A stretch of DNA of 64,000 nucleotides from Modestobacter sp. Leaf380 (GTDB taxonomy: Bacteria; Actinomycetota; Actinomycetes; Mycobacteriales; Geodermatophilaceae): the NCBI RefSeq assembly GCF_001424485.1, contig NZ_LMQC01000019.1:496001-560000 (forward strand), read 5' to 3'. The notes below the pieces were generated by a model, which searched no databases, was not told the DNA's origin, and saw only the letters and a program-made list of their open reading frames with translations. This document shows positions 13,941 through 47,143 of this stretch, piece by piece; position 1 is the stretch's first letter, and every line of letters begins with the position of its first letter. The position numbers and the translations under genes are program-made.

Positions 13941-13954
13941 GTTCCACGTGGAAC
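13941..13954. promoter_or_regulatory. Putative parS site (ParB binding), perfect palindrome
   Basis: GTTCCACGTGGAAC is a perfect 14-bp palindrome in the short gap between the ArsR-like gene and the RNB gene. It matches the core of the bacterial parS consensus (TGTTTCACGTGAAACA) with the T-to-C change compensated on both arms. An identical copy lies at 47.1 kb, and the window is inferred to be origin-proximal. Confidence 0.8.
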
Positions 13955-13978
13955 CGCGCGCTGTGCCACGGTGGCGCC

Positions 13979-15364
13979 GTGGCTCGCGTGCTGAGGGTGT
14001 CCGGTCCGCTCGACTTCGCCGCGATCAGGGCGGAGGCCGGGGTCCCCGAGGAGTTCCCGGCCGACGTGCTGGCCGAGGCCGACCGGGTGGCGGCCGACCC
14101 GCCGCTGCCCGAGCACGACGCCACCGACCTGCCGCTGGTCACCATCGACCCGCCCGGCGCGCGCGACCTGGACCAGGCCGTGCACCTTGCCCGCACCGAC
14201 GGCGGCTACCGGGTCTCCTACGCGATCGCCGACGTCGGCGCCTTCGTCCCGCTGGGCAGCGCGATGGACGCCGAGGCCCGTCGCCGTGGCCAGACCGTCT
14301 ACTGCCCCGACGGCCGGACGCCGCTGCACCCGCCGCAGCTGTCCGAGGGCGCGGCCAGCCTGCTGCCCGGCGAGCTCCGGCCGGCTGCGCTGTGGACCAT
14401 CGACCTGGACACCGAGGGCGAGGTCACCGCGGTCGACCTGCGCCGGGCCCGGGTCCGCAGCCGGGCCCAGCTGGACTACGAGTCGGTGGGCGCCGACGTG
14501 CCGCCGGAGCTGGAGCTGCTGCCCGAGATCGGCCGCCTGCTGCAGGCCCGGGCCCGCGACCGCGGCGCGATCGAGCTGGGCACGCCGTCCCAGGAGGTCG
14601 AGGCCGGCCCGGACGGCGGGTGGACCGTCGTGTTCCGCGGCCAGTCCGACGTCGAGGGCTGGAACGCGCAGATCTCGCTGCTCACCGGACGCTGCGCGGC
14701 CCGGCTGATGCTCGACGGCGGGGTCGGCGTGCTGCGCACCCTGCCGCCGCCGGACCCGGGCGCGGTGACGGCGCTGCGCCGGCTGGCCCCCGGACTGGGC
14801 GTCGACTGGCCCGCGGGCGCCACCCCCGGTGAGGTCATCGGCGGGCTGGACCCGGCCCAGCCCCGGCAGGCCGCGTTCCTGGACGCCGCTGCCTCGCTGC
14901 TGCGCGGCGCGGCCTACACGGCCTTCGACGGCACCCTGCCGGCCCAGCCCGGGCACGGCGGCGTCGGTGGTGAGTACGCGCACGTGACCGCCCCGCTGCG
15001 TCGGCTGGTCGACCGGTTCGGCACCGAGGTGTGCCTGGCGCTGGCCGCCGGCGAGCAGCCCTCGGCGGAGCTGCGGGCCGCACTGCCCGAGCTGCCCGCG
15101 CTGATGGCCGCCTCGGACCGGCGCACCCACGAGGTGGAGCGCGCCGTCGTCGACCTGGTGGAGGCCACCCTGCTGGCCGGCCGGGTCGGGGAGGTCTTCG
15201 ACGCGGTCGTGCTGGACGCGGAGGAGAAGCGGTCCACCGTGGTGCTCACCGACCTCGCCGTCCAGGCGCGGTGCGACGGGCGGCTGACCCCGGGTGCCGA
15301 GGTCCGGGTGCGGCTGACCGTCGCCGACCCGGCGACCCGGGCGGTCCGCTTCGAGCGGGCGTGA
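13979..15364 (+). CDS. RNB-domain 3'-5' exoribonuclease (RNase II/R-like)
   Basis: A 461-aa protein dominated by the RNB catalytic domain. The metal-binding signature TIDPPGARDLDQAVHL (near residues 58-73) supplies the conserved aspartates, followed by YAIADVGAFV, RGQTVYCPD and the C-terminal GGEYAHVTAPLRRLVDR motif. The usual cold-shock and S1 RNA-binding domains of RNase II/R are missing or reduced, so this is the short actinobacterial form. It degrades RNA 3' to 5'. The start is a GTG 24 nt after the parS-like palindrome. Confidence 0.88.
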   Translation: MARVLRVSGPLDFAAIRAEAGVPEEFPADVLAEADRVAADPPLPEHDATDLPLVTIDPPGARDLDQAVHLARTDGGYRVSYAIADVGAFVPLGSAMDAEARRRGQTVYCPDGRTPLHPPQLSEGAASLLPGELRPAALWTIDLDTEGEVTAVDLRRARVRSRAQLDYESVGADVPPELELLPEIGRLLQARARDRGAIELGTPSQEVEAGPDGGWTVVFRGQSDVEGWNAQISLLTGRCAARLMLDGGVGVLRTLPPPDPGAVTALRRLAPGLGVDWPAGATPGEVIGGLDPAQPRQAAFLDAAASLLRGAAYTAFDGTLPAQPGHGGVGGEYAHVTAPLRRLVDRFGTEVCLALAAGEQPSAELRAALPELPALMAASDRRTHEVERAVVDLVEATLLAGRVGEVFDAVVLDAEEKRSTVVLTDLAVQARCDGRLTPGAEVRVRLTVADPATRAVRFERA

Positions 15365-15579
15365 GCGCGTCGTTCACCGACTACCGGGGCGATCCGATCG
15401 CCGCCGGCGACCGGGTGCGGATCGTCCCCACCCGCACCCGCCGGGGCGTGCCGGCCTACCTCGGCGGTGAGGTCGGCGTGATCGCCTCCCTCGGCCGGAG
15501 CAAGGTCACCGTCGTGCTGGACCGCTACCCCGACCGGCCCTGGGTGGTGCCACCGGACGTGCTGGTGGCCGTGCGGTGA
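15361..15579 (+). CDS. Small beta-rich protein, function unknown
   Basis: A 72-aa protein beginning VSASFTDYRGDPIAAGDRVRI and ending in RPWVVPPDVLVAVR. The pattern of a DRVRI strand, then GGEVGVIASLGRSKVTVVLD, suggests an SH3/KOW-like beta-barrel. The GTG overlaps the RNB stop (GTGA) and its stop is 15 nt before the aminotransferase start, so it is part of the same operon. I do not recognise a named family. Confidence 0.65.
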   Translation: MSASFTDYRGDPIAAGDRVRIVPTRTRRGVPAYLGGEVGVIASLGRSKVTVVLDRYPDRPWVVPPDVLVAVR

Positions 15580-15593
15580 GGGAGGCTCGGGCC

Positions 15594-16766
15594 ATGAGCA
15601 CCCCGCACCTCGCCCAGCGGCTGCAGGGCTTCGGGACGACGGTCTTCGCCGAGATGAGCGCGCTCGCCGTCGCCACCGGGTCGGTCAACCTGGGTCAGGG
15701 CTTCCCGGACACCCCGGGCCCCGCCGAGGTGCTCGACGTCGCCCGGGCCGCGATCGGGACCCCGCTGGACCAGTACCCGCCCGGCCCCGGCCTGCCGGTG
15801 CTGCGCGAGGCGGTGGCGGCGCACGTGCAGCGCTTCCGCGGGCTGTCCTACGACCCGGACACCGAGGTGCTGGTGACCGCCGGGGCGACCGAGGCGCTGG
15901 CCGGGGCGCTGCTGGGGTTGCTGGACCCCGGCGACGAGGTGGTCGTCTTCGAGCCGCTGTACGACTCCTACGCGGCCGGCATCGCGATGGCCGGCGGCGT
16001 CGTCCGCCCGGTGCCGCTGCACCCACCGACGGAGGACGGCGTCAGCACCGACCCGTGGGTCTTCGACGAGGCCGACCTGCGCGCCGCCGTCGGCCCGCGC
16101 ACCACGCTGGTGCTGCTGAACACCCCGCACAACCCGACCGGCAAGGTCTTCTCCCGCGCCGAACTGGAGCTGGTGGCCGAGCTCGCCCACGAGCACGACC
16201 TGCTGGTGCTCACCGACGAGGTCTACGAGCACCTGGTCTTCTCCGGCGCCGAACACGTCTCGCTGGCCGAGCTGCCCGGCATGCGCGAGCGCACCCTGGT
16301 GGTCTCCAGCGGCGGCAAGACCTTCTCCACCACCGGCTGGAAGATCGGCTGGGTCTGCGGCCCGGCCGAGCTCGTCACCTGCGTCCGGACGGCGAAGCAG
16401 TTCCTCACCTACGTCAACGGCGGGCCGTTCCAGCCGGCGATCGCCGTCGGGCTGGGGCTGCCCGACGCGTACTTCCACGCGCTGGCCGCGGACCTGGAGC
16501 GCAAGCGGGACCTGCTGGTCGCCGGGCTGGCCGCTGCCGGGCTGCCGGTGGTCCGCCCGCAGGCCACCTACTTCGCCACCGTCCGGGTCCCCGGGGACGG
16601 GCTGGCGTTCTGCCGGGAGCTGCCGCACCGGGTGGGCGTCGTCGCCGTCCCCAGCTCGGCGTTCTACACACCCGAGCACGCGGACCTGGGCCGGCACCTG
16701 GTCCGGTTCGCGTTCTGCAAGCGCGACGAGGTGCTCACCGAGGCCGTGGGGAGGCTGACCGCGTGA
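15594..16766 (+). CDS. PLP-dependent class I/II aminotransferase (YbdL/DapC-like)
   Basis: A 390-aa fold-type I aminotransferase. The PLP-binding lysine is in SSGGKTFSTTGWKIGW (near residue 240). Other conserved elements are TAGATEAL, NTPHNPTGKVF and LTDEVYEHLVF. The family includes methionine/glutamine aminotransferase (YbdL, KAT) and N-succinyldiaminopimelate aminotransferase. Because an omega-amidase-type nitrilase follows with a GTGA overlap, glutamine or methionine transamination coupled to omega-amidase is favoured over DapC. ATG start chosen for its GGAGG about 8 nt upstream. Confidence 0.85.
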   Translation: MSTPHLAQRLQGFGTTVFAEMSALAVATGSVNLGQGFPDTPGPAEVLDVARAAIGTPLDQYPPGPGLPVLREAVAAHVQRFRGLSYDPDTEVLVTAGATEALAGALLGLLDPGDEVVVFEPLYDSYAAGIAMAGGVVRPVPLHPPTEDGVSTDPWVFDEADLRAAVGPRTTLVLLNTPHNPTGKVFSRAELELVAELAHEHDLLVLTDEVYEHLVFSGAEHVSLAELPGMRERTLVVSSGGKTFSTTGWKIGWVCGPAELVTCVRTAKQFLTYVNGGPFQPAIAVGLGLPDAYFHALAADLERKRDLLVAGLAAAGLPVVRPQATYFATVRVPGDGLAFCRELPHRVGVVAVPSSAFYTPEHADLGRHLVRFAFCKRDEVLTEAVGRLTA

Positions 16767-17521
16767 GGATCGCCGTCGTCCAGCACGACATCGCCTGGGA
16801 GGACCGGGCCGCCAATCACGCCCGGCTGGCCGACCACGTCGCGCGAGCGGCCGCTGCAGGCGGCCAGCTGGTGCTGCTCAGCGAGACCTTCTCCACCGGG
16901 TTCTCCATGACCGAGGGCATCGGCGAACCCGAGGGCGGCTCGTCGGCGCAGTGGCTCACCGCGCAGGCGCAGCAGCACGGCGTCTGGGTCGGCGGCTCGT
17001 GCGCCGAGGTCGCGGCCGACGACCCGCGGCCCTACAACTCCTTCGTGCTGGCCGGGCCCGACGGCACCGTGCACCGGTACCGGAAGCTGCACCCGTTCAC
17101 TCACGCCGGTGAGCACGAGCGCTTCCGGGCGGGCTCCGCGCCGGTGACCGTGCAGGTCGGGGACCTGCGGGTGAGCCTGTTCGTCTGCTACGACCTGCGC
17201 TTCGCCGACGATTTCTGGGCCCTCGCCCCGGACACCGACGTCTACCTGGTGCCGGCCAACTGGCCCGCGGCTCGGCGGCTGCACTGGCAGACCCTGCTGC
17301 AGGCCCGGGCCATCGAGAACCAGGCCTACGTCGTGGGCTGCAACCGGGTGGGCACCGCCGGCGACGGCACCGAGCACGTGGGGGACAGCCGGATCGTCAG
17401 CCCGCTGGGCGAGCTGCTGGCCACGGCGGCGGGGGGCGAGACGATCCTGCTCGCCGACGTCGACCCCGCCGAGGTCGCCCGCGTCCGGGCCCGGTTCCCC
17501 TTCCAGGCCGACCGCCGCTGA
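16763..17521 (+). CDS. Nitrilase-superfamily amidohydrolase (omega-amidase-like)
   Basis: A 252-aa carbon-nitrogen hydrolase with the catalytic triad in place: Glu in LLSETFSTGF, Lys in YRKLHPF and Cys in VCYDLRF (near residue 137). The next segment, PANWPAARRLHWQTLLQARAIENQAYV, is typical of the Nit2/YafV omega-amidase branch, which hydrolyses 2-oxoglutaramate or 2-oxosuccinamate. It is coupled to the preceding aminotransferase, which would produce such ketoacid amides. Confidence 0.85.
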   Translation: MRIAVVQHDIAWEDRAANHARLADHVARAAAAGGQLVLLSETFSTGFSMTEGIGEPEGGSSAQWLTAQAQQHGVWVGGSCAEVAADDPRPYNSFVLAGPDGTVHRYRKLHPFTHAGEHERFRAGSAPVTVQVGDLRVSLFVCYDLRFADDFWALAPDTDVYLVPANWPAARRLHWQTLLQARAIENQAYVVGCNRVGTAGDGTEHVGDSRIVSPLGELLATAAGGETILLADVDPAEVARVRARFPFQADRR

Positions 17522-17529
17522 CCCGCCCC

Positions 17530-17588
17530 GGCATGGGATCCCCCGCATACGGCAGAGGGCCCACGCCGTATGCGGGGGATCCCATGCC
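17530..17588. terminator. Perfect 24-bp inverted repeat between convergent genes
   Basis: Left arm 17530-17553 and right arm 17565-17588 are exact reverse complements, separated by 11 nt. Each arm contains GGGATCCCCCGCATACGG. It begins 9 nt after the omega-amidase stop and lies about 140 bp before the convergent EEP gene's stop, so a bidirectional terminator is likely. The long perfect arms could also belong to a dispersed repeat family. Confidence 0.8.
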
Positions 17589-17727
17589 AGGTCGGCCCCG
17601 GGTGGGACGAGAGTTCACCGGGAAGCAACACGGCGCAGGTGCAGGCCGGCACCGGGCTGGGCAGTGAGCGCCTGCCCGGGCGGCGGTGTGCGCACCCGCC
17701 GCCCGGGGCGCCTCCCCCGGGCGCCGG

Positions 17728-18687
17728 TCAGGCGGTCGGCAGCACCAGCTCGGCGACGACGGCCCGGTGGTCGCTGCCGGCGACGCGGCGGACCCGGACC
17801 GAGCGGACGCCGACCCGGGCGTCGACGAGGACGTGGTCGATGACCAGCCGGGGCTGCGGCACGGACTGCGGGCTCCAGGTGGTGGTCAGGGCCTCGCCGG
17901 CGGCACGGGCGGCGTCCACGTACCCGCGGCCCAGCAGTCGGCGGAAGGCGGCGTGGTCCAGCGTGCCGTTGTAGTCCCCGGCCAGCACCCGGACGACGTC
18001 GGGCGCGGGGTCGGGGAGCTCGTGCAGGTCGGCCTCCCAGCGGGCGACGTCGCGCCGGGACCGGGCCGGCGGCTGGGTGTGCACGGCGGTGAGGTCGACG
18101 GGCGGTCCACCGGGCACGGCGAGGAGGGCGCGGGGCTGGTCGAACCGGCCGGGCACCCGGCCGCGCCGGGTGAGCGGGTGCCGGGACCAGACCGCGCCAC
18201 CGGCGCCGGGCGGGTTGCCGGGGCGGGCGTGCAGCACGTGGTCGTGGGGGAGCAGGTCGCCGATGCCGGCGGCCCGCAGCGCGGCCTCGGCCTCGGGGGT
18301 GACCTCCTGCAGGGCCAGGGCGTCCAGGTCGTGGTCCCGGACCAGGGCGACGAGGCCGCCGGCGTCGGCCCGGCCGTGCAGCATGTTCACGGTGGCCAGC
18401 CGGAACGGGCGGCCGCCCTCGGTGGGTGTGGGGCAGGTGCCCCGACGGCCGAGGACGGCGGCGCCCAGCGCCCCGGTGGCGAGGGCGGCGAGCGCCGTCC
18501 CGGGGGCCGACCGGCGGGCCAGCGCGACGCCCAGGGGGAGCACCGAGGTGACCGCCGCGTAGGGGGTGAAGGACATCGCCGGCACCCACGGGAAGCCCCG
18601 TTCGGCACCGGTCGCGCGGAGCCCGGCCCACACCGCCCAGGGGGTCGCCAGGGCCAGGGGCAGCAGGTCACGCGGTCGCCGTCGCAT
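17728..18687 (-). CDS. Endonuclease/exonuclease/phosphatase (EEP) family membrane protein
   Basis: A 319-aa protein. The first about 85 residues hold two or three hydrophobic helices. The rest is an EEP (DNase I-like) domain: RLATVNMLHGRAD (Asn, metal site), LALQEVTPE (Glu), GDYNGTLDH (Asp/Asn) and GSDHRAVVAEL (Asp-His). All catalytic motifs are present, so it is probably an active membrane-anchored phosphodiesterase acting outside the cell; the substrate is not known. The start ATG is followed by RRRPRD before the first helix. Confidence 0.85.
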   Translation of the reverse strand: MRRRPRDLLPLALATPWAVWAGLRATGAERGFPWVPAMSFTPYAAVTSVLPLGVALARRSAPGTALAALATGALGAAVLGRRGTCPTPTEGGRPFRLATVNMLHGRADAGGLVALVRDHDLDALALQEVTPEAEAALRAAGIGDLLPHDHVLHARPGNPPGAGGAVWSRHPLTRRGRVPGRFDQPRALLAVPGGPPVDLTAVHTQPPARSRRDVARWEADLHELPDPAPDVVRVLAGDYNGTLDHAAFRRLLGRGYVDAARAAGEALTTTWSPQSVPQPRLVIDHVLVDARVGVRSVRVRRVAGSDHRAVVAELVLPTA

Positions 18688-18707
18688 CGTCGGCCACGGT
18701 AGGCGCC

Positions 18708-18725
18708 GTCGATCCCAAGATCGAC
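18708..18725. promoter_or_regulatory. Small palindrome in divergent intergenic region
   Basis: GTCGATC-CCAA-GATCGAC is a 7-bp perfect inverted repeat in the 126-bp gap between the divergent EEP and CYTH-CHAD genes. It is a candidate operator or a chance hairpin; no regulator is assigned. Confidence 0.35.
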
Positions 18726-18813
18726 TCGACGGTTGCCGTTCACCTGGATGCGGTATCAAGCCCCTGACATCCGCCCAGGTCCGGGCGGACCGACGAGCAG
18801 GGGTGTGTGCACC

Positions 18814-20682
18814 GTGGCGACCGAACACGTGGAGATCGAGCGGAAGTTCGACGTCGAGGAGGCGTTCGCACTGCCCGACCTCAGCGGGGTCCCGGGGGTC
18901 GCCTCGGTGGGTGCGCCGGTGGTGCACGAGCTGGCCGCCACCTACTACGACACCGCCGACCTGCGGCTGGCCCGCGCGCACGTCACGCTGCGCCGCCGGC
19001 TGGGTGGCACCGACGCCGGCTGGCACCTCAAGCTGCCCGTGGCGGCCGGTGCCCGCCGGGAGTTCCACTCCCCGCTGGGCCGCGCCGTCAAGGCGCCGCC
19101 GCGCGCGGTGATCACCCCCGTGCTCGGCATCGTCCGGCGTGCGTCCGCGGCCGCCGTCGCCACGCTGGCCACCCGGCGGACCGTCGTGACCCTGCTGGCC
19201 GAGGACGGCCGGGTGCTGGCCGAGGTGGCCGACGACCTGGTCACCGGCACCCAGCTGCCCGCGGGCCCGGGCCAGGCCGCCGTCGTCACCACGTGGCGCG
19301 AGGTGGAGGTCGAGCTGGTGGACGGCGACGAGGAGCTGCTGTCCGCCGTCGGCGCCGAGCTGGTCGTCTCCGGGGCCCGCGCCTCGGCCTCGCAGTCGAA
19401 GCTGGCGACGGTGCTGGCCGGGCGGCTGGCGCCGCAGCCCACCGAGCCCGACGACGAGGACGACGACGTGTCCCCGGTCGGGGAGCCCGAGGACGCCGAG
19501 GACGCCGTCCAGGAGCCGACCGCGCAGGAGACCGAGCCGGCCGAGGAGGAGCCGCTGCCCGAGGGCAAGAAGGCCCGGGCCGCGGAGCTCGCCCGCCGGG
19601 CCGCGGAGGCCAAGGCGGCCGCCAAGGCCGCGGCGAAGGCCGAGAAGCAGCGTGCCGCCGAGGAGAAGGCGGCTGCCAAGGCCGCGAAGAAGGCCCGCAA
19701 GGAGGCCGAGGCGGCCGCCGCCGAGGAGGCCCGACTGGCCGCGGTGCCCCAGGCCGGTGACGTCGTCGTCGCTGCGGTGGCCGCGCAGCTGGCCGCCCTG
19801 CAGCGGGCCGACCTGATGGTCCGCACCGACGTGCCGGACGGCGTGCACCAGGTCCGGGTCGCCAGCCGCCGGCTGCGCAGCATCCTGGCCGCCTACCGGC
19901 CGGTGCTGGTCCGGGAGCAGACCGACCCGGTCCGCGCCGAGCTGCAGTGGCTGGGTCAGGAGCTGTCGGGGACCCGGGACGCCGAGGTGTCCCTCGAGCA
20001 CCTGCGGGCACTGGTCGCCGCGCAGCCGCCCGAGCTGGTGCTGGGCCCGGTCGCGGCCCGGCTGCAGCAGGCCGAGCTGCAGGGCGAGGCCGCCGGCGGG
20101 GACCGGGCGGGCGCCGTGCTGGGCACCGCCCGCTACCTGACCCTGCTGGACACCCTGTTCGAGCTGGTCGAGCACCCGCCGCTCACCGAGCGGGCCGGCG
20201 AGCCCGCCGAGGACGTGCTGCGGGAGGTGCTCAGGCACACCGTGAAGCGGATGCGCCGCCAGGTCGAGACCGCCGAGGACGCCGAGCGCGGGGGCGCCCC
20301 GATCGGCACCACCCCGCCCGCCGAGTCCCCGGGTGCGGTCGAGTCGCCCTACGAGCTGGCGCTGCACGAGGTGCGCAAGTCCGGCAAGCGGGTCCGCTAC
20401 ACCGCCGAGGTCGCAGCGCCGGTGCTCGGCGGGTCCGTGATGGGCCTGGTCGACGCCATGAAGAAGGTGCAGGACGTCCTCGGTGACATGCAGGACACCG
20501 TCGTCACCCGGGAGCAGTGCCGCCAGCTGGGCATCGCCGCGTTCGGGGCCGGGGAGAACGCCTGGACCTTCGGCCGCCTGCACGCCCTGGAGGAGGCCCG
20601 CGCACTGCGCGCCGAGGAGGACTTCTGGGAGCTGTGGCCGACCATCGGCCCGGTGCTGAACGGGGCTGTCGGGAAGCGCTGA
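18814..20682 (+). CDS. CYTH-CHAD protein with long charged linker
   Basis: A 622-aa protein. The N-terminal CYTH domain (about residues 1-205) has the diagnostic EIERKF (ExExK) motif and is a triphosphate tunnel fold that hydrolyses triphosphates. Residues about 210-315 are acidic (EPDDEDDD) and then strongly Ala/Lys/Glu-rich, forming a probable helix or coiled coil. The C-terminal CHAD domain (about 320-620) has the basic helices HQVRVASRRLRSIL and HEVRKSGKRVRY that bind polyphosphate. CYTH-CHAD proteins act on inorganic polyphosphate or triphosphate. The linker is unusually long. The GTG gives the family N-terminus; another GTG 9 nt earlier is possible. Confidence 0.88.
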   Translation: MATEHVEIERKFDVEEAFALPDLSGVPGVASVGAPVVHELAATYYDTADLRLARAHVTLRRRLGGTDAGWHLKLPVAAGARREFHSPLGRAVKAPPRAVITPVLGIVRRASAAAVATLATRRTVVTLLAEDGRVLAEVADDLVTGTQLPAGPGQAAVVTTWREVEVELVDGDEELLSAVGAELVVSGARASASQSKLATVLAGRLAPQPTEPDDEDDDVSPVGEPEDAEDAVQEPTAQETEPAEEEPLPEGKKARAAELARRAAEAKAAAKAAAKAEKQRAAEEKAAAKAAKKARKEAEAAAAEEARLAAVPQAGDVVVAAVAAQLAALQRADLMVRTDVPDGVHQVRVASRRLRSILAAYRPVLVREQTDPVRAELQWLGQELSGTRDAEVSLEHLRALVAAQPPELVLGPVAARLQQAELQGEAAGGDRAGAVLGTARYLTLLDTLFELVEHPPLTERAGEPAEDVLREVLRHTVKRMRRQVETAEDAERGGAPIGTTPPAESPGAVESPYELALHEVRKSGKRVRYTAEVAAPVLGGSVMGLVDAMKKVQDVLGDMQDTVVTREQCRQLGIAAFGAGENAWTFGRLHALEEARALRAEEDFWELWPTIGPVLNGAVGKR

Positions 20683-20686
20683 GGAC

Positions 20687-21535: not shown

Positions 21536-21596
21536 CTCACGACCCCTCTGACTGGAGCACCCCCTGTCCCTGATCGCCCTGCTGGGCTTCGGCTCC

Positions 21597-22850: not shown

Positions 22851-22853
22851 GGC

Positions 22854-23429: not shown

Positions 23430-23506
23430 GGTGGCATGGTGACAGGTGGCCGCCGGAGCGGCCGAGCCGGGTCGGGCCCCACGGGTCTCGGTATCCCCGC
23501 AGTGGG

Positions 23507-24106: not shown

Positions 24107-24277
24107 CGAGGCGTCCTGACGCACGTGGGGGCGGGGCGCGTCGCAGGGTAGACCCGTGCTCGGCCTGCGTCACAGCCGCATGGCATCGATCCCAGGTGCG
24201 TTGTGCGCGATCCTGTTCCGCTTCCTGGTGACGGGATCGGTACCGAAACGGATCCCTCCTGCCCTCAAATGCCGTGC

Positions 24278-24299
24278 GACGTCATGACGTCTAGACGTC
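24278..24299. promoter_or_regulatory. Triple GACGTC operator upstream of GntR gene
   Basis: Three GACGTC hexamers spaced by 2 bp (AT, then TA) create two overlapping perfect 14-bp palindromes, GACGTCATGACGTC and GACGTCTAGACGTC. The second contains GTCTAGAC, the core bound by HutC/DasR-type GntR regulators. It ends 23 nt before the GntR start codon, so autoregulation is likely. Confidence 0.75.
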
Positions 24300-24322
24300 T
24301 CCTGATCGAGTACCTTTCGGTC

Positions 24323-25063: not shown

Positions 25064-25175
25064 GCGGCACCGGCCGGCCCACCGCCCACCCGCCGCCCAC
25101 CGCGGACGCGAGGCAGGTCACCCAGCCAGGCCGGATACCGTCGGGGACGCCGCCGCACCCGACGTCTGGAGCCGC

Positions 25176-35769: not shown

Positions 35770-35803
35770 CCGTCGGGTAAACCGCGGTTACCCAGCTCCA
35801 CCC

Positions 35804-35926: not shown

Positions 35927-35969
35927 GTCGGACCGGCCGGGGGCGTCGTCGTGCCAGGAGGTGTGTCCC

Positions 35970-37968: not shown

Positions 37969-38002
37969 CCCGACCGGTGAGTTGACGGGCAGAGGAGCAG
38001 TC

Positions 38003-39274: not shown

Positions 39275-39317
39275 GCGGTCCGTCGACGTCCCCGGGGCCA
39301 CCGGGCACCATGGGCGG

Positions 39318-40898
39318 GTGGACCCAGCGACCCGCGTCTTCGGTGACCGGTACGAACTCCGGTCGCTGATCGCCACCGGCGGCATGGGCCGGGTCTGGCG
39401 GGCGCACGACCAGCGGCTGGGCCGCCCGGTCGCGGTCAAGGTGCTGCGCAGCGAGTACGCCGGGGACGAGGGGTTCCTGGCCCGCTTCCGCGCCGAGGCC
39501 CGGCACACCGCGCTGCTGCACCACCGCAACGTCGTCGCCGTCTTCGACTACGGCGAGACCGAGGCGACCGACGGCGAGCACCTGGCCTACCTGGTGATGG
39601 AGCTGGTCGTCGGGGAGTCCCTGGCCGACGTCGTCCGGCGGGAGGGGGCGCTGCCGGCCGACCAGGTGCTGGAGGTGGTCGCCCAGACCGCGGCCGGGTT
39701 GGCCGCCGCGCACGAGGTCGGCATCGTGCACCGCGACGTGAAGCCGGGCAACGTGCTGGTCCGCTACGACGGGTCGGTCGCGGTCACCGACTTCGGCATC
39801 GCCTGGTCTGCGGAGAGCGTCTCGCTGACCCTCACCGGCCAGGTCATCGGCACCGCGCACTACCTCTCGCCCGAGCAGGCCGAGGGCCGCGCGGCCACGC
39901 CGGCCAGCGACGTCTACGCCCTGGGCATGGTCGCCTACGAGCTGCTCGCCGGCCGCCGCGCCTTCGAGGGCGAGAGCTCTGTGGCGGTGGCGCTGAGCCA
40001 GATCCGGGACGAGCCGCCGGCGCTGCCGTCCTCGGTGCCCGCGCCGGTCCGCGACCTGGTGGCCGCGATGCTGGTGAAGGACCCGCACCGGCGGCTCGCC
40101 GACGGCGACGCCGTCGTCGCCGCGGTGGCCCGGGCCCGTGCGGGCGACCCCTCCACCGCCGGCACCGAGCTGCTGGACCTGGTGCCCCCGGCCGGGGTGA
40201 CGGCGCTGCTGGACCCGGGTCTGGTGTCGGGGGAGACCCCGCTGCCCGGCCACGGGCCCGGTGACGAGGGTCCCGATGACGAGGGTCCCGAGGACGCCGG
40301 GCCCGACGACGACGGGCCCCGTGGACGGCGCCGGCCGCTGCTGCTGGCCGGTGTCCTGGGCGCGCTGGTCCTGGTGGGGGTGGGCGTCGCGCTGCTGCTG
40401 GGCATCGGCCGGGACACCGAGGAGCCGGTGACCGCAGCCGGGCCGACCACCACGTCGGCGGCCCCCGCCGAGACCGAGCCGACGGTGACCCTGGACCCGG
40501 CGGCCTACGTGGGCCGGCCGCTGGCCGACGTGACCGCGGAGCTGACCGCGCTGGGTCTCACCGTCGTCTCCGTGGAGACGGCCGCGGGCGACGCGGCAGC
40601 GGGGGTCGTGGTCGAGGTGGCGCCCGCCGGGACGCCGCTGGCGCCCGGTGCCGAGGTCACCGTCACCCACACCGGTGAACCGGTGCCCGCACCGGCGACC
40701 ACGGTGGGCGCGCCCGCGCCGACCGTCGGCGAGCTGCCACTGCCCGCCCCCGAGCCCACCGTCGCCCCGGCCCCCACCCAGGACCGGCCCGGCGGCAGCG
40801 GGAACGGCGGTGGGAACGGGAACGGCGGGGGGAACGGGAACGGCGGTGGGAACGGCAACGGGAACGGCGGCGGTCGGGACGACGAGGACGACGACTGA
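39318..40898 (+). CDS. Ser/Thr protein kinase with one PASTA-like domain
   Basis: A 526-aa membrane kinase. The kinase domain (about residues 10-270) is complete: GGMGRVW, VAVKVL, HRDVKPGN, DFGIAW, GTAHYLSPEQ. An acidic linker leads to one transmembrane helix (near 338-360), then an extracellular PASTA-like domain (AYVGRPLADVTAELTALGL...) and a Pro-rich segment. The tail is a Gly/Asn repeat (GGGNGNGGGNGN). It is a paralogue of the PknA at the window start. CACCAT lies 6 nt before the GTG start, so it may be leaderless. Confidence 0.9.
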   Translation: MDPATRVFGDRYELRSLIATGGMGRVWRAHDQRLGRPVAVKVLRSEYAGDEGFLARFRAEARHTALLHHRNVVAVFDYGETEATDGEHLAYLVMELVVGESLADVVRREGALPADQVLEVVAQTAAGLAAAHEVGIVHRDVKPGNVLVRYDGSVAVTDFGIAWSAESVSLTLTGQVIGTAHYLSPEQAEGRAATPASDVYALGMVAYELLAGRRAFEGESSVAVALSQIRDEPPALPSSVPAPVRDLVAAMLVKDPHRRLADGDAVVAAVARARAGDPSTAGTELLDLVPPAGVTALLDPGLVSGETPLPGHGPGDEGPDDEGPEDAGPDDDGPRGRRRPLLLAGVLGALVLVGVGVALLLGIGRDTEEPVTAAGPTTTSAAPAETEPTVTLDPAAYVGRPLADVTAELTALGLTVVSVETAAGDAAAGVVVEVAPAGTPLAPGAEVTVTHTGEPVPAPATTVGAPAPTVGELPLPAPEPTVAPAPTQDRPGGSGNGGGNGNGGGNGNGGGNGNGNGGGRDDEDDD

Positions 40899-41028
40899 CC
40901 CGTCCCGTCGCGCCCCGGGCCCTGCTGGCGTGCCCCGGTCGTCGTTCTCCCCGGGAGTGTCGGTGACCCGGGCTAACCTCTGCGGGACCGCCCGGACCCG
41001 GGTCCGGGCGAGGCGAGGGGGTGGGACG

Positions 41029-43401
41029 GTGGCCGGCGCAGCAGCCGAGGTCGACTTCGAGGCCGTCTTCCGGGCCATCCCCACGCCCTACCTGGTGATG
41101 GACGCCGGTCTCACGATCGTCGACGCCAACCCCTCCTACCTCGCCACCACCGGGCGGGTCCGGGACGAGCTGGTCGGTCGGCACGTCTTCGACGCGTTCC
41201 CGGCCGGGCCCAGCGACTCCGAGGCCGACGGCGGTGTCAGCAAGGTGCAGGCCTCCTTCGAGCGGGCCCGCGACACCCGGGTCCCCGACGTGATGCCGCT
41301 GCAGGAGTACGCCATCCCCGACGGCAGGGGTGGGTTCTCCCAGCGCTTCTGGAGCCTGATAAGCACCCCGGTCCTCGACGCCGGGGGCACGTGCACCCAC
41401 GTGGTGCAGCGCGCCGAGGACGTCACCGACTACGTGCTGGAGCAGCGCCGGGCCCAGGCCGAGGGCCACTCCAGCGAGGACTGGCAGCGGCGGGTGCTGG
41501 AGGTCGAGTCCGACCTGTACGCCCGCGGTGTCGAGCTGACCGCGGCACGGGACGCCGAGGCGCTGAGCGCCAGCCGGCTGGCCGCGCTGAGCACCGTCGC
41601 GCTGCGGCTGGCCGGGGCCGAGACCGTCGACCAGCTGCTGGCCACCGTCACCGGTGAGGGCATGGCCGTCTTCGGCTCCCCCGGGGGCGCGGTAGCGGTC
41701 CGGGACGGCGACGTGCTGCGCTCGCTCATCTCCTCGGAGCTCGGTGGTGCGGCCACGCAGCGCACCTACGGCGAGGTCCCGCTCGACGGCCCGCTGCCGG
41801 TCAGCGTGGCCACCCGCACCGGGCAGCCGGTGCTGTTGGCCGACCGGGCGGCCTGCCTGGCGTTCACCCCGGAGATGGCCGGCGTCGTCGAGGCCACCGG
41901 TTCGGTCGCGTTCGCCAGCCTGCCGCTGGCCTCCGGCGGCCGGGTGACCGGGTGCCTCACCGTCTCCTGGGCGCAGCCGCGGACCTTCCTGCCCGCGGAG
42001 GTCGAGGTGCTCGTCGCGTTCGCGGCGCAGTGCGCGCAGGCGCTGGACCGGATCCAGACCCGCGAGGCCGAGCTGCGCAGCGCCCGCCGGCTGGCCACCA
42101 TCGCCGAGGTCGCCATCGCGCTGTCCCGCACCGAGGACGTCGTCGCGCTGACCCGCGTCGTCGTCGAGCAGGGACTGTCGGCGCTGGGTGCCGACGGTGG
42201 TGCCGTCGCGGTCCTGGACGAGGAGGAGCAGGAGCTCCGGCTGGCCATCACCGACGGGCTGGGCGAGGGCACCCAGGACCAGTACGGCGTGCTGCCGCTC
42301 GACGGCCCGCTGCCGGCCTGCGTGGCCGCCCGGGAGGGCCGCACGGTGGTGCTGCACGACGCCGCGGAGTCCCTCGCGTTCACCGCCGACATGGGCCCGG
42401 TCGTGGAGCAGACCGGGGCGCAGGCCTGGGTGGCACTGCCGCTGCGCACCGGCGGCCGCATCCGCGGCTCGCTCACCGTGGGGTGGGCGCACCCGCAGGC
42501 CTTCACCGCCGAGGAGTTCGAGGTCGTCACCGCCTTCGCCGCACAGTGCGCGCAGGCCCTGGACCGGGTGCTCACCCGGCAGGCCGAGCGGACCGCGCTG
42601 CGGGCGCTGGCCGGCACCGTCGAGGCGCTGCAGCGCAGCCTGCTGTCCGAGCCCCCGGAGCCCGACCACCTGCAGGTCTCCGTCCGCTACCTGCCGGCCG
42701 CGCGTCAGGCCCAGGTCGGCGGCGACTGGTACGACAGCTTCCTGCTCGGCGACGGCCGCACGGTGCTGGTCATCGGCGACGTCACCGGGCACGACTCCTA
42801 CGCCGCGGCCGCCATGGCCCAGGTGCGCAACGTGCTCCGCGGGGTCGCGCACAGCCGTGGCGGGACGCCGGCGGAGATCGTCACCGGCCTGGACCGCGCC
42901 ATGCGCGACCTGGACGTCGGCACGCTGGCCACCGCCGTGCTGGCGACGGTCGAGCAGACCCCGGACGACGCCGCCCGCGGGGAGCGGGTGCTGCGCTGGA
43001 CCAACGCCGGGCACCCCCCGCCGCTGCTGCTGCACCCCGACGGCCGGGTCGAGCTGCTGGAGGCCCGCCCCGACCTGCTGCTGGGCGTGGACCCGGAGCG
43101 GTCCCGCGGCGACCACGAGCGGGTGCTCGAGCCCGGGGCGACCGTGCTGCTCTACACCGACGGCCTGGTCGAGCGCCGCGGCGTCGCCATCGACGAGGGC
43201 ATCACCTGGCTGTCGGAGCTGCTGGCGGGGCTGCGCCACCTGCCGCTGGAGGACCTCTGCGACCGGGTGCTCGCCGAGCTGTCCGGCCGGGTCGACGACG
43301 ACGTGGCCCTGCTGGCCATCCGGGCGCACCCCGAGGACCAGCCGCGGCCCGCATCGGCCGGTCCCGAGCTGGTCCCTGTCGGGCACAGCGCACTCGTCTG
43401 A
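41029..43401 (+). CDS. PAS-GAF-GAF-SpoIIE Ser/Thr phosphatase
   Basis: A 790-aa cytoplasmic sensor-phosphatase: PAS domain (about residues 10-140), two tandem GAF domains (about 185-340 and 355-520) and a C-terminal SpoIIE/RsbU-type PP2C phosphatase (about 560-775). Phosphatase motifs: GGDWYDSF, VIGDVTGHD, TNAGHPPPLLL and LYTDGLVE. The two GAF units share YG-x-x-PLDGPLP and FAAQCAQALDR, indicating duplication. Such enzymes usually dephosphorylate anti-sigma-factor antagonists. GTG start with GAGGGGG upstream. Confidence 0.9.
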   Translation: MAGAAAEVDFEAVFRAIPTPYLVMDAGLTIVDANPSYLATTGRVRDELVGRHVFDAFPAGPSDSEADGGVSKVQASFERARDTRVPDVMPLQEYAIPDGRGGFSQRFWSLISTPVLDAGGTCTHVVQRAEDVTDYVLEQRRAQAEGHSSEDWQRRVLEVESDLYARGVELTAARDAEALSASRLAALSTVALRLAGAETVDQLLATVTGEGMAVFGSPGGAVAVRDGDVLRSLISSELGGAATQRTYGEVPLDGPLPVSVATRTGQPVLLADRAACLAFTPEMAGVVEATGSVAFASLPLASGGRVTGCLTVSWAQPRTFLPAEVEVLVAFAAQCAQALDRIQTREAELRSARRLATIAEVAIALSRTEDVVALTRVVVEQGLSALGADGGAVAVLDEEEQELRLAITDGLGEGTQDQYGVLPLDGPLPACVAAREGRTVVLHDAAESLAFTADMGPVVEQTGAQAWVALPLRTGGRIRGSLTVGWAHPQAFTAEEFEVVTAFAAQCAQALDRVLTRQAERTALRALAGTVEALQRSLLSEPPEPDHLQVSVRYLPAARQAQVGGDWYDSFLLGDGRTVLVIGDVTGHDSYAAAAMAQVRNVLRGVAHSRGGTPAEIVTGLDRAMRDLDVGTLATAVLATVEQTPDDAARGERVLRWTNAGHPPPLLLHPDGRVELLEARPDLLLGVDPERSRGDHERVLEPGATVLLYTDGLVERRGVAIDEGITWLSELLAGLRHLPLEDLCDRVLAELSGRVDDDVALLAIRAHPEDQPRPASAGPELVPVGHSALV

Positions 43402-43415
43402 CGCATGATCGCCGG

Positions 43416-44321
43416 GTGCCCGCACCCGTGCTGCCCGACCTGACCGACCGCACCGTGCTGGTGACCGGCGCGAACGCCGGGCTCGGCTACTGGGCCACCG
43501 AGCAGCTGGCCGCGCGCGGGGCGCGGGTGCTGCTGGCCTGCCGGTCGGCGTCCCGGGCCGCCGCGGCCGTGGCCGCCGTCCGGGAGCGGGTGCCGGGCGC
43601 CCGGCTGGACGTGCTGTCCCTCGACGTCGCCGACCTGGCCTCGGTCGCCGCCTGCGCGGCCGCCGTCGACGTCGGGCTGGACGCCGTGCTGTGCAACGCC
43701 GGGGTGACCGAGACCCGCGGTCGGCAGACCACCGCCGACGGGTTCGAGCTGATGATGGGCGGCAACGCGCTGGGGCACGTGGCGCTGGTCGCGGCCCTGC
43801 TGGACCGGTTGCGTCCCGGCGGCCGCGTGGTCACCGTCGGTTCCATCGCCCACCGGTGGTCGCCGCTGGACCCCGCCGACCTGCAGGCCGAGCGTGGGTT
43901 CCGGTCCTTCCGGCAGTACGGCCGGTCCAAGACCGCGGCCATGGCGTTCGCGTTCGAGCTGGACCGCCGGTTCCGGGCCGTCGGGCGCGATGCCCTGGCC
44001 CTGGCCGCCCACCCCGGCTTCGCGCTGGACTCGTCGACACCGCAGCGCAGCGGCGTCAACGAGGTCGCGGTGCCGCTGCGGGTGGTCGCGCAGCCGGCCC
44101 GGGCCTTCGCCCAGGGCAAGGACGCCGGCGCCTGGCCGCTGGTGCACGCCTGCGTCGGGGACGGCGTCCGCGGCGGGGAGTACTGGGGTCCCGGCGGCTG
44201 GCAGGAGATGACCGGCCGCCCGGCACCGAGCCGCGCCCGCGCCCACGTGCGCGACGAGGTCGCCGGGGCGCGGTTCGTGGCCGCCGCCGAGCGGGCCACC
44301 GGGGTGCGGCTAGGCCTCTGA
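43416..44321 (+). CDS. Short-chain dehydrogenase/reductase
   Basis: A 301-aa SDR. The nucleotide-binding TGANAGLG motif is near residue 17 and NAG at CNAGV near 95. A catalytic Ser is in VGSIAHRW and the YxxxK motif is YGRSK (near 168). It resembles the retinol-dehydrogenase/WWOX-like branch; substrate unknown. The GTG start is preceded by CATGAT 7 nt upstream, suggesting leaderless expression. Its end overlaps the convergent membrane-protein gene by 12 nt. Confidence 0.85.
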   Translation: MPAPVLPDLTDRTVLVTGANAGLGYWATEQLAARGARVLLACRSASRAAAAVAAVRERVPGARLDVLSLDVADLASVAACAAAVDVGLDAVLCNAGVTETRGRQTTADGFELMMGGNALGHVALVAALLDRLRPGGRVVTVGSIAHRWSPLDPADLQAERGFRSFRQYGRSKTAAMAFAFELDRRFRAVGRDALALAAHPGFALDSSTPQRSGVNEVAVPLRVVAQPARAFAQGKDAGAWPLVHACVGDGVRGGEYWGPGGWQEMTGRPAPSRARAHVRDEVAGARFVAAAERATGVRLGL

Positions 44322-44690
44322 GCAGGCCTCTGAGCGGGTTTCTGAGCGGGCCTCTGGGGCCGCAGCCGGGGACCGCTCGGCCAGTGCGGCGAGGACCAGG
44401 CAGGCGACGGCACCGGCCAGGGCCAGCCGGCCGGGGGTCGCGTCCAGACCGCCCAGCAGGACGCCCACCGCGCCGACGGCCGCAGCCGCGGTGAGCAGCC
44501 GGGCGCGGCCGGTGCGCAGGGCCAGCGCGGCCAGCACCGCCGCACCCAGGACGGCGACCCGGGCCGGGTGGGCGGTCCCGGGCAGCACACCCCAGGGCAG
44601 GCCCGGGGACAGCACGCCGAGCACCCCGGCGACGGCGAGCAGCAGCCGGGCGCGCGGCCCGGCCGGGGCGTGACCCGCGGTGTCCGTCAC
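44310..44690 (-). CDS. Small membrane protein with four-residue C-terminal repeats
   Basis: A 126-aa protein with about four hydrophobic helices and a C-terminal tail EARSETRSEACSEA encoded by 12-bp repeats. No family recognised. The GTG overlaps the stop of the upstream gene (GTGA), so both form an operon. Confidence 0.65.
   Translation of the reverse strand: MTDTAGHAPAGPRARLLLAVAGVLGVLSPGLPWGVLPGTAHPARVAVLGAAVLAALALRTGRARLLTAAAAVGAVGVLLGGLDATPGRLALAGAVACLVLAALAERSPAAAPEARSETRSEACSEA
44312..44359. repeat. 12-bp tandem repeat, four units, across two stop codons
   Basis: Four 12-bp units (AGGCCTCTGAGC twice exactly, then GGGTTTCTGAGC and GGGCCTCTGGGG) cover the overlap of convergent genes. 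On the minus strand they encode a four-residue repeat; the SDR stop lies in the first unit. Confidence 0.8.
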
Positions 44691-45550
44691 TTCCGGCGGT
44701 CGTGCACCAGCCAGAGCGCACCGGCCGACAGCGCCACCCCGGCGGTCAACACGAAGCCCTGGTCGGTGGCCACGCCCGGGAGCACGACGAGCACCCAGAA
44801 CAGCAGCAGCCCGGCGCCGCCGGCCGCGCCGACCTGCCAGGCCTGGCGGCGGCTGAGCCCACCGCGGCTGGGCACGAACGGCACCAGGGCGACCAGCGCC
44901 GCCAGGGTCGCGAACCCCGACCAGGTGGGCAGCGCCGACCAGACCGAGGACCCGAGGCCGAAGGACAGCGACAGGCCCAGCTCCAGGACGACGAGACCCA
45001 GCACCCCGAGCACGGTGGCGGTCAGCGTGGCCCGGTCGGCTGGGGTGCGCTGCGAGGCGCTGACCCGGGGGGCGCGGCCGGTGTCGTGAGCCTGACCCTG
45101 GGCGCTGCCGACCGGGGCGCTGGGGTGCGGCGGGGGCTGCTCGCCCGGGAAGCCGGGGACCCAGTCCATCGGGCCGGTCGGCGCGGCCGGGTAGGCCGGG
45201 TCGTAGCCCTGCGGCAGCCGGTACTCCTGGGGCCCGGTCATCCCGGGCGGCGGACCCTGCGGACCGGTCGCGTGCGGGCCGGTCGCCTGCGGGCCGGGCG
45301 GGACGTGTCCCTGCGGGCCGGTGTGCTGCTGCCCCTGCCCCTGCCCCTGCCCCTGCTGACCGGGCCGCTGGCCCTGGTGTGCGGCGGGCTGCGGCGGCGG
45401 GCCCTGCGGGGGCAGGCCCTGGTGGAAGACCGGCTGCGAGGGCTGGTGCGGGTGCGCGCCGGTGGACGGGCCCTGGGCTGCGGGCAGCTGCGCGGTGCGC
45501 GGGTCCTGCGGCCCGTCGGCCGGCGGGGGCGGGTAGGGCGGCTGGCTCAC
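44687..45550 (-). CDS. Pro/Gln-rich membrane protein, function unknown
   Basis: A 287-aa protein. The first about 160 residues are low-complexity Pro/Gln/Gly (GQQGQGQGQGQQ, PPQGPPPQP), and the last about 110 form four transmembrane helices. Such architecture is common in actinobacterial envelope proteins of unknown role. GTG start with GAGGAG 5-6 nt upstream. Confidence 0.75.
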   Translation of the reverse strand: MSQPPYPPPPADGPQDPRTAQLPAAQGPSTGAHPHQPSQPVFHQGLPPQGPPPQPAAHQGQRPGQQGQGQGQGQQHTGPQGHVPPGPQATGPHATGPQGPPPGMTGPQEYRLPQGYDPAYPAAPTGPMDWVPGFPGEQPPPHPSAPVGSAQGQAHDTGRAPRVSASQRTPADRATLTATVLGVLGLVVLELGLSLSFGLGSSVWSALPTWSGFATLAALVALVPFVPSRGGLSRRQAWQVGAAGGAGLLLFWVLVVLPGVATDQGFVLTAGVALSAGALWLVHDRRK

Positions 45551-45847
45551 GGTTCTCCTCGGTGCGGTCGGGCAGCGGTCGGTCGACGGGGCAGGTCGGC
45601 GGGGTGGCCGACGGGTCGGTCGGACGGTCCCCCGTGGACACCGGCGCCCGGACCGGGTCGTCGGCCACCGTATCGGCGGGCTGGTGGGGGTCGGGGGACC
45701 CGCCGGGGTGGGTCGCCCGAGCCCCCGGCCTGCCGTGGCCCGCCGGGCACCCCGGCCGTCACCCCGACAGCCACCCCGACCGCCAGACCCCACCGGCCGG
45801 CCCGCGCGACCGGGCGGGACCCCGTGCACCCGCCTAGGGTCGCCGAC
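45551..45847. other. Divergent intergenic region upstream of cinA
   Basis: About 300 bp between the divergent membrane-protein and cinA genes. Apart from a TAGGGT hexamer (45835-45840) 7 nt before the cinA GTG, a leaderless-type -10, I see no gene, RNA or palindrome of note. Confidence 0.5.
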
Positions 45848-47125
45848 GTGGGAGCGCGCGCGGGCATCGTGGTCACCGGCACCGAGGTGCTCACCGGGCG
45901 GGTGACCGACCGCAACGGCCCCTGGCTGGCCGAGCAGCTGCGCACCCTGGGCGTCGACGTCGGCCAGGTGGTGGTGGTCGGCGACCGGCCCGAGGACCTG
46001 GCCTCCGCGCTGCGGTTCCTGGCCGCCACCAACGACCTCGTCTTCACCTCCGGGGGGCTCGGTCCGACCGCCGACGACCTCACCGCCCAGGTCGTGGGCG
46101 ACACCCAGGGCCGGCCCAGCGCGGTCGACGAGGCCCTGGCCGACCGGATCGGCGCCATCGTCGACCGGCTGATGGCCCGCCGCGGCTGGCGGGTCGACCC
46201 GGAGGCGACGCTGGCCGGCACCCGCAAGCAGGCGCAGGTGCCCCACGGAGCACTGGTGCTCGAACCGGTCGGCACGGCGCCCGGTCTCGTCGTCCCTCCC
46301 GCCGAGGGTGACGGCCCGCCGGTGGTCGTGCTGCCCGGCCCGCCGCCGGAGCTGCAGGCCATGTGGCCCGCCGCCCTGGCGGCCGAGCCGGTCCGCGCCG
46401 TGCTGGCCCGGGCCACCGAGCTCCGCCAGGACACCCTGCGGCTGTGGGGCACCCCGGAGTCCGAGCTGGCCGCCACCCTGCGCCGGATCGACGACCAGCT
46501 CACCGGCCTGGAGGTCACCACGTGCCTGCGGGACGGCGAGCTGGAGATCGTCACCCGCTACGCCCCCGACGCCGCCGACGCCTACGCCCGGCTGGTGGAC
46601 GCCGTCCGCGGTGACTTCGGCGGCACGCTGTTCAGCGAGGGCGAGGACGTCGACACCCTGGTCACCCGCGCGCTGGCCGACCACGGCTGGACCGTCGCCA
46701 CCGCCGAGTCCTGCACCGGCGGCCTGCTCGCCGCCCGGCTCACCGGCCGTCCCGGCGCCTCGTCGGCCGTGCTCGGCGGGGTGGTCGCCTACGCGAACAC
46801 CGCCAAGGAGCAGCTGCTCGACGTCCCGGTGGCGCTGCTGGAGGCGCACGGTGCGGTCAGCCCCGAGGTGGCCCGCGCCCTCGCCGAGGGTGCCCGCTCC
46901 CGGTTCGGTGCCGACGTCGGCATCGGCGTCACCGGAATCGCCGGCCCCGGCGGTGGGACGGCGGACAAGCCCGTCGGCACCGTCCACCTGGTCGCGGTCG
47001 GCCCGGACGGCGTCGCCTCCCGCTCGCTGGTCGTGCCCGGGGACCGCACCGCCTTCCGCACCCGCACGGTCACCGTGGGCATGCAGGTGCTGCGCTCGCT
47101 CCTGCTCGGCGGTCCGCCGGCATGA
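45848..47125 (+). CDS. cinA: CinA-family protein (CinA/PncC two-domain)
   Basis: A 425-aa protein with an N-terminal molybdopterin-binding-like (COG1058) domain, GIVVTGTEVLTGRVTDRNG and FTSGGLGPTADD, and a C-terminal nicotinamide-nucleotide amidohydrolase domain with TAESCTGGLLAARLT and GIAGPGGGTADKPVGTV. CinA participates in NMN/ADP-ribose salvage and, in some bacteria, competence. The start GTG is preceded by TAGGGT at a leaderless-promoter distance. Confidence 0.93.
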   Translation: MGARAGIVVTGTEVLTGRVTDRNGPWLAEQLRTLGVDVGQVVVVGDRPEDLASALRFLAATNDLVFTSGGLGPTADDLTAQVVGDTQGRPSAVDEALADRIGAIVDRLMARRGWRVDPEATLAGTRKQAQVPHGALVLEPVGTAPGLVVPPAEGDGPPVVVLPGPPPELQAMWPAALAAEPVRAVLARATELRQDTLRLWGTPESELAATLRRIDDQLTGLEVTTCLRDGELEIVTRYAPDAADAYARLVDAVRGDFGGTLFSEGEDVDTLVTRALADHGWTVATAESCTGGLLAARLTGRPGASSAVLGGVVAYANTAKEQLLDVPVALLEAHGAVSPEVARALAEGARSRFGADVGIGVTGIAGPGGGTADKPVGTVHLVAVGPDGVASRSLVVPGDRTAFRTRTVTVGMQVLRSLLLGGPPA

Positions 47126-47129
47126 CCGC

Positions 47130-47143
47130 GTTCCACGTGGAAC
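47130..47143. promoter_or_regulatory. Putative parS site (ParB binding), perfect palindrome
   Basis: Second exact GTTCCACGTGGAAC, in the 40-bp gap between cinA and the SRPBCC gene, 33.2 kb from the first copy. Intergenic placement of both copies supports a selected function. Confidence 0.8.

What the first reader, a model, noticed from the sequence alone, without database searches (positions are those of the whole stretch)
13941..47143. Two perfect GTTCCACGTGGAAC palindromes, probable parS sites
Identical 14-bp perfect palindromes occur at 13941-13954 and 47130-47143, both in short intergenic gaps. Two exact copies in gaps of about 45 and 40 bp are unlikely by chance, even at this GC content. 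They match the parS core with symmetric T-to-C changes. The neighbouring pknA-fhaA block is normally near oriC, where actinobacterial parS sites cluster. This would set the parS variant of this lineage and the position of the window relative to oriC.
Basis: partly seen in the sequence, partly recalled or inferred. Interest (0 to 1): 0.7.

Follow-up and report, generated by a model that had tools for sequence, protein, structure and literature searches.

The report
Origin-clustered parS sites in Klenkia
The two palindromes are almost certainly parS sites, the DNA tags that the ParB protein grips to pull apart newly copied chromosomes; here they belong to a set scattered around the replication origin, in a spelling already known from other bacteria.

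Summary
GTTCCACGTGGAAC lies at 13941-13954 and 47130-47143. The window's genome (Klenkia, Geodermatophilaceae) holds 12 exact copies, all on the one contig of 25 that carries dnaA and parAB, from -409 to +78 kb of dnaA; about 0.008 would be expected by chance genome-wide. One copy, with a mixed C4/T4 copy 33 bp away, sits just upstream of parA. The window starts about 31 kb from dnaA.

Ten of the 12 sites have a parS at the matching place in K. terrae and/or K. taihuensis. A third window site, 59427-59440, is one synonymous base away from a parS that both relatives keep.

The spelling is not new: it is an established parS in Pseudomonas and Myxococcus. It is abundant in 31 of 35 sampled family genomes (6-15 exact copies), whereas 92 of 118 genomes sampled across the class hold the T4 form. 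A changed ParB recognition-helix serine was tested as the cause and rejected. Drift at a tolerated base in very G+C-rich genomes fits better but is not sufficient. New member of a known kind.

The parts
13941..13954 (.). parS site 1, GTTCCACGTGGAAC; +44.5 kb from the dnaA start
   Evidence: exact match; same gap carries parS in K. terrae and K. taihuensis although the upstream sequence differs
47130..47143 (.). parS site 2, GTTCCACGTGGAAC, 4 bases after the cinA stop; +77.7 kb from the dnaA start
   Evidence: exact match; perfect copy 4-5 bases after the cinA stop in 5 of 6 same-genus genomes, the window's own included
59427..59440 (.). probable decayed parS, GTTCCATGTGGAAC, inside an ABC-transporter gene; +90.0 kb from the dnaA start
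   Evidence: one mismatch; orthologous position is a perfect parS in K. terrae and K. taihuensis, the difference being a synonymous His codon
13475..13933 (+). ArsR-like HTH gene upstream of site 1
   Evidence: own gene call, Pfam HTH_20/HTH_5
13988..15364 (+). RNB-domain (RNase II type) gene downstream of site 1; start may be 13979
   Evidence: own gene call, ORF list, Pfam RNB
45848..47125 (+). cinA, upstream of site 2
   Evidence: own gene call, Pfam CinA and MoCF_biosynth
47166..47555 (+). Polyketide_cyc2 gene downstream of site 2
   Evidence: own gene call, Pfam
58405..60051 (+). ABC-transporter gene that contains the decayed site
   Evidence: own gene call, Pfam ABC_membrane and ABC_tran

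Best explanation
The palindromes are chromosomal parS sites of the ParABS segregation system of a Klenkia (Geodermatophilaceae). Shown by sequence: 12 identical sites spread over about 490 kb on both sides of dnaA, one of them (with a mixed C4/T4 copy 33 bp away) just upstream of the called parA; one ParB with ParB_N, HTH and dimerisation domains, and a ParA-type ATPase next to it; site positions matched between species. Inferred from the known family: ParB dimers load at each site as CTP-bound clamps, slide onto flanking DNA, form the origin complex that ParA moves, and recruit SMC. The two window sites would be the two exact loading points on the right side of the origin. The change T4 to C4 would be drift at a base that ParB tolerates, pushed by very high G+C content and then spread through the array in one clade of the family.
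For: 12 of 12 exact copies lie on the 614-kb contig C19 and none on the other 24 contigs; chance 2e-11 if placement were even. dnaA and the only TIGR00180 match are on C19. dnaA is flanked by gaps of 946 and 986 bp, between genes that I name rpmH and dnaN from their sequence by recall. Pair upstream of parA, a neighbourhood that carries parS, mainly T4, in most of the 80 named loci. ParB and ParA domains. 10 of 12 sites have a parS at the matching position in K. terrae and/or K. taihuensis; three of them (C19 414704, 446013, 460891) also in one Modestobacter and one Blastococcus. The same 14-mer is an experimentally studied parS elsewhere. For drift: sites near parB are C4-majority in 10 of 17 genomes with local GC of 0.73 or more, 2 of 35 at 0.70-0.73 and 0 of 54 below 0.70; published consensus sequences have N at position 4.
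Against: No binding data for this organism. Two of 12 sites (C19 184303, 338558) have no counterpart among the relatives' sites compared. A perfect parS lies within 1.5 kb downstream of cinA in only 13 of 30 family loci examined. The flanking T...A of the 16-bp consensus is absent at the two window sites. Four of 12 sites fall inside predicted genes and one is borderline. The longest ParA reading frame runs over the parA pair; that the pair is upstream rests on the shorter start. High G+C alone does not explain C4: 7 of 17 genomes with local GC of 0.73 or more are not C4-majority. The assembly is in 25 contigs, so what lies beyond C19's right end is unknown.
Confidence: 0.95

Rival explanations
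1. The palindrome is the operator of a transcription factor (an E-box-like CACGTG dyad) that controls genes near the origin.
For: It is a perfect dyad, often in short intergenic gaps.
Against: Strict clustering around dnaA; four copies inside genes by my calls; site 1 is kept while the sequence upstream of it differs between species; a copy sits beside parA, where most relatives carry parS.
Confidence: 0.03
2. The sites are parS, but the C4 spelling reflects a new binding specificity of the Geodermatophilaceae ParB, which prefers C4 over T4.
For: The C4 genera form one ParB clade with 100/100 support and a stem of 0.26. Three ParB positions (214, 217, 243 here) are the same in all 8 family C4 genomes and found in 3%, 2% and 7% of the 94 other genomes. 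Position 214 shows the strongest link overall: any residue seen in C4-majority genomes occurs in 16% of the others.
Against: No position from 153 to 265 fully separates the 12 C4-majority genomes from the 94 others. The recognition-helix serine is shared with many T4 users, and the four C4-majority genomes of family f37 have proline there. Mixed C4/T4 copies are kept beside parA in 7 of 10 named family loci with sites.
Confidence: 0.15
3. Chance repeats of a short palindrome.
For: Only 14 bp; two copies in 64 kb.
Against: Expected 0.008 genome-wide, found 12, all on the dnaA/parAB contig, 10 of them matched in relatives.
Confidence: 0.005

Closest known systems
parS of Pseudomonas aeruginosa (parS1-parS4, TGTTCCACGTGGAACA/C)
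   Same: Identical 14-bp core with C4 (one passage of PMC4368675).
   Different: A cluster of four such sites close to oriC there (title of PMC4368675); here 12 over about 490 kb, and C...C instead of T...A/C outside the core at the two window sites.
parS of Myxococcus xanthus (consensus TGTTCCACGTGGAACG)
   Same: Identical core; ParB binds it in gel shift (passages of PMC3899335).
   Different: 22 repeats packed in 3 kb; here single dispersed sites apart from the parA pair.
parS sets of Streptomyces
   Same: Many sites near oriC: 16 in S. venezuelae with a 17th by ChIP-seq, 21 in S. coelicolor (review table).
   Different: T4 spelling in the review table; nine sampled genomes of one genus with 8-23 exact T4 and no exact C4 copies are probably Streptomyces (name inferred).
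parS of Corynebacterium glutamicum and mycobacteria
   Same: Actinobacterial ParABS; in C. glutamicum 9 of 10 sites are intergenic.
   Different: N4/T4 consensus; ten sites in 35 kb in C. glutamicum, three sites in M. smegmatis.

Membership tests
chromosomal parS | 14-16 bp inverted repeat around CACGTG matching the parS consensus | tested here: met
   GTTCCACGTGGAAC; identical core to P. aeruginosa and M. xanthus parS
chromosomal parS | Clustering near the replication origin | tested here: met
   12 of 12 on the dnaA contig, -409 to +78 kb; origin placed by dnaA and gene order, not by DnaA boxes
chromosomal parS | A copy beside parAB | tested here: met
   C19 460891 and mixed copy 460924, next to the called parA start
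chromosomal parS | Cognate ParB and ParA encoded in the genome | tested here: met
   one ParB; Pfam ParB_N, HTH_ParB, ParB_C, and AAA_31/CbiA for ParA
chromosomal parS | Sites maintained in related species | tested here: met
   10 of 12 with a counterpart in K. terrae and/or K. taihuensis; cinA gap 5 of 6 same-genus genomes, own included
chromosomal parS | ParB binds the site in vitro or in vivo | not testable with these tools
   needs ChIP-seq or gel shift
parS as 16-mer TGTTNCACGTGAAACA | Flanking T and A outside the 14-bp core | tested here: not met
   window sites read C-core-C; the last base is also not A in P. aeruginosa parS1 and parS4, so I do not take this as defining

The most novel reading that the evidence does not exclude
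Within Geodermatophilaceae a clade switched its whole origin array from the canonical T4 parS to the C4 form while the array grew from 1-2 sites beside parA to 8-23 sites spread over hundreds of kilobases. Site positions are partly conserved between genera, which makes the family a natural experiment on how a bacterial centromere is re-spelled and enlarged without an obvious change in the ParB recognition helix.
Probability: 0.5. Interest if true: 0.4.

Novelty: new member of a known kind. Interest (0 to 1): 0.27.

Why it matters
It gives the parS spelling and places the window relative to the origin for a member of Geodermatophilaceae; a library search for that family name with parS found 0 papers, and a looser one showed none on the subject in the 10 listed of 75. 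It also warns that scans with the exact T4 palindrome alone would miss the parS set of this genome, which has 0 exact T4 copies. Conserved, slowly decaying positions allow study of gain and loss of centromere sites.

Tried and rejected
Recognition-helix hypothesis: the family has a serine where most of the other ParBs have proline (GRSRS against GRSRP), and I suspected that this reads C4. Tested on 106 genomes with a parS near parB: 37 have S, of which 8 are C4-majority; 67 have P, of which 4 are C4-majority. A scan of ParB positions 153-265 found none that fully separates C4-majority genomes from the rest; position 214 comes closest. The serine idea is rejected; a wider change in ParB is kept as a rival.

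G+C content as sole cause: C4-majority genomes all have local GC of about 0.725 or more, but 7 of 17 genomes at 0.73 or more are not C4-majority. Kept as necessary at most. GC was measured on the 3-6 kb loci only, and related genomes are not independent.

One-mismatch copies as parS: 12 in the genome, 9 on C19, more than an even spread gives (1.5e-6). Of the 8 on C19 outside the parA pair, only 2 (320142 and 555427) had a perfect parS at the matching place in the Klenkia relatives. Relatives' loci were fetched only where they hold GTTYCACGTGRAAC, so shared variants would be missed. The other 6 remain undecided.

DnaA boxes: the TTGTCCACA/TTATCCACA consensus (recalled) gave no dense cluster in the gaps beside dnaA, and GC skew over those 40 kb was noisy. 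The origin therefore rests on gene order.

Gene calls are from my own codon-usage script, not a standard annotator; the 7 of 12 intergenic count depends on it.
Full report
OBSERVATION. GTTCCACGTGGAAC occurs exactly at 13941-13954 and 47130-47143; a one-mismatch copy is at 59427-59440. With up to two mismatches 3 matches stand against 0.17 expected, and 0 of 100 shuffles reach 3. Among 29 distinct 14-bp perfect palindromes in the window it is the only repeated one, and a first-order Markov model expects 0.0001 exact copies in the window. Site 1 begins 7 bases after the stop of an ArsR-like HTH gene, upstream of an RNB gene. Site 2 begins 4 bases after the cinA stop, upstream of a Polyketide_cyc2 gene.

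WHOLE GENOME. The window is G000:C19:496001-560000 of a 4.76-Mb genome in 25 contigs. Exact copies: 12, all on C19 (614,046 bp), none elsewhere. Even placement would give this with probability 2e-11, and the expected number genome-wide is 0.008. The only DnaA match and the only TIGR00180 (ParB) match are on C19. Distances from the called dnaA start are -409.4, -296.4, -281.1, -126.9, -110.2, -84.4, -67.9, -50.7, -19.4, -4.5, +44.5 and +77.7 kb; the last two are the window sites. The window therefore covers about +31 to +95 kb. The -4.5 kb site and a mixed copy GTTCCACGTGAAAC 33 bp away lie in the 219-bp gap upstream of the called parA; the longest ParA frame, with an earlier start, would run over them. 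dnaA is flanked by gaps of 946 and 986 bp, with a small minus-strand gene (rpmH by recall) on one side and a gene starting MKFRVAREVL (dnaN by recall) on the other. No exact T4 copy GTTTCACGTGAAAC exists.

ORGANISM. The ParB is 90% identical to those of Klenkia terrae and K. taihuensis and 75-82% to those of Modestobacter and Blastococcus. The tool's genus g1 is Klenkia: G002 has cinA at the contig and place where K. taihuensis (G060) has its parS. In the same way G011 (g5) matches Modestobacter sp. VKM Ac-2977 (G061), and G033 (g11) has the same site coordinates as Blastococcus sp. DSM 46786 (G062). Family f1 is therefore Geodermatophilaceae.

CONSERVED POSITIONS. 3-kb stretches around 22 window-genome sites (12 perfect, 10 imperfect) were compared with 45 stretches around sites of K. 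terrae, K. taihuensis, one Modestobacter and one Blastococcus. Ten of 12 perfect sites have a parS at the matching place in one or both Klenkia species; C19 184303 and 338558 have none. C19 414704, 446013 and 460891 are matched in Modestobacter and Blastococcus too; site 2 is matched in the same neighbourhood in Modestobacter. Of the 10 imperfect sites, 2 (320142, 555427) are matched by perfect sites in both Klenkia species. Downstream of cinA, a perfect parS lies 4-5 bases after the stop in 5 of 6 same-genus genomes (the window's own included), and the sixth has a two-mismatch remnant. It lies at 588 bases in 4 of 4 genomes of g5 (Modestobacter), at 386-398 in 3 of 3 of g2, at 711 in one of g4, and not within 1.5 kb in the other 16 of 30 loci examined; 33 genomes matched and 3 had no locus. 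G002 and G011 repeat genomes already used. At site 1 the RNB side is conserved while the upstream sequence differs, and K. taihuensis lacks about 26 bases just after the palindrome, yet the palindrome is kept. At 59427 both relatives have the perfect site; the window's difference is synonymous (CAT against CAC, His). That is what loss of a parS inside a kept protein would look like.

INTERGENIC BIAS. By my own gene of 12 perfect sites are intergenic, 1 overlaps a gene end by 7 bases, and 4 are inside genes. The window is 7.6% intergenic, so 7 or more of 12 has probability 8e-6.

HOW COMMON THE C4 SPELLING IS. Exact C4 palindromes: 31 of 35 sampled Geodermatophilaceae have 6-15 and 4 (genera g7, g9) have none; 6 of 24 genomes from other families of the order have 1-2. 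In a class-wide sample of 118, 19 of 117 other genomes have 1-5, while 92 of 118 have the T4 palindrome. With position 4 left open, the 31 genomes have 8-23 sites, the four g7/g9 genomes 1-2 and the 24 others 1-8. The four g7/g9 genomes carry T4 sites beside parB. On a ParB tree of 45 rows the C4 genera form a clade of 12 rows with 100/100 support, apart from g7/g9. g7 and g9 are fragmented assemblies, and the ParB tree does not show f1 as one clade, so the order of events is inferred.

WHY C4. Of 106 genomes with sites near parB, C4-majority is seen in 10 of 17 with local GC of at least 0.73, 2 of 35 at 0.70-0.73 and 0 of 54 below. Spearman 0.43, without correction for kinship. A changed recognition-helix residue was tested and rejected, and no ParB position from 153 to 265 fully separates the two groups, although three are special to the family. 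Published consensus sequences with N at position 4 and mixed C4/T4 sites beside parA in 7 of 10 named family loci with sites fit a tolerated position. The best account is drift at a tolerated base in G+C-rich genomes, plus lineage history; G+C content is not sufficient.

MECHANISM. From established knowledge of ParABS: CTP-bound ParB dimers load at parS, close and slide, and the complex is moved by ParA and recruits SMC (introduction passages of PMC12511625). In C. glutamicum a single parS allows growth and division like wild type, with some differences in chromosome folding, and the authors suggest that extra sites add robustness (passages of PMC7083940). The same is likely here but untested. 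SMC and ScpAB were not searched for.

COMPARISON WITH THE KNOWN. The exact 14-mer is a studied parS in P. aeruginosa (PMC4368675, passage) and in M. xanthus, where ParB binds it (PMC3899335, passages). A review table lists it for P. putida and M. xanthus and lists T4 or N4 forms for the three actinobacteria named (PMC7022226, passages). A full-text search for the 14-mer found 9 papers; by title none is devoted to an actinobacterium; I saw passages of 3 and did not open the other 6. The residues that read parS bases 1 and 6 are known from Caulobacter ParB (PMC7383237, passages and section 9); base 4 is not treated in what I saw. A search for Geodermatophilaceae with parS found 0 papers. A looser search found 75; the 10 listed have no 'ParB', and one has the word 'pars' once, in a mouse gut study. 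The library lacks most subscription journals, so absence from print is not claimed.

VERDICT. Real, correctly interpreted, ordinary in kind. What is added: the full array, position conservation, the decayed third site, and the family-wide C4 spelling.

Noticed in passing
59427-59440: A parS apparently decaying by a synonymous substitution inside an ABC-transporter gene; perfect in two relatives.
   Followed up: partly
L018 with L019 (C19 464475-465420 and 467200-468185): The two gaps beside dnaA, about 950 bp each, have no dense cluster of canonical DnaA boxes; a GGCAC tandem run lies just upstream of dnaA.
   Followed up: partly
C19 449174-449682 (in L018): A 509-bp stretch without a called gene and with 85% G+C.
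   Followed up: no
G000 contig C2 (106,563 bp), 19232, 78660 and 90682: Three imperfect parS-like sites on a short contig; it may adjoin the right end of C19, but this was not tested.
   Followed up: no
class sample, family f37 (G085, G100, G115, G127, G140): A second actinobacterial family with C4 parS (1-5 exact copies; exact T4 copies 0 in four of the five), with proline in the ParB recognition helix in the four ParBs read.
   Followed up: partly
L048 and L090 (Actinomycetospora): A C4 and a mixed parS beside parA in both loci, which are 74-75% G+C and belong to another family.
   Followed up: no
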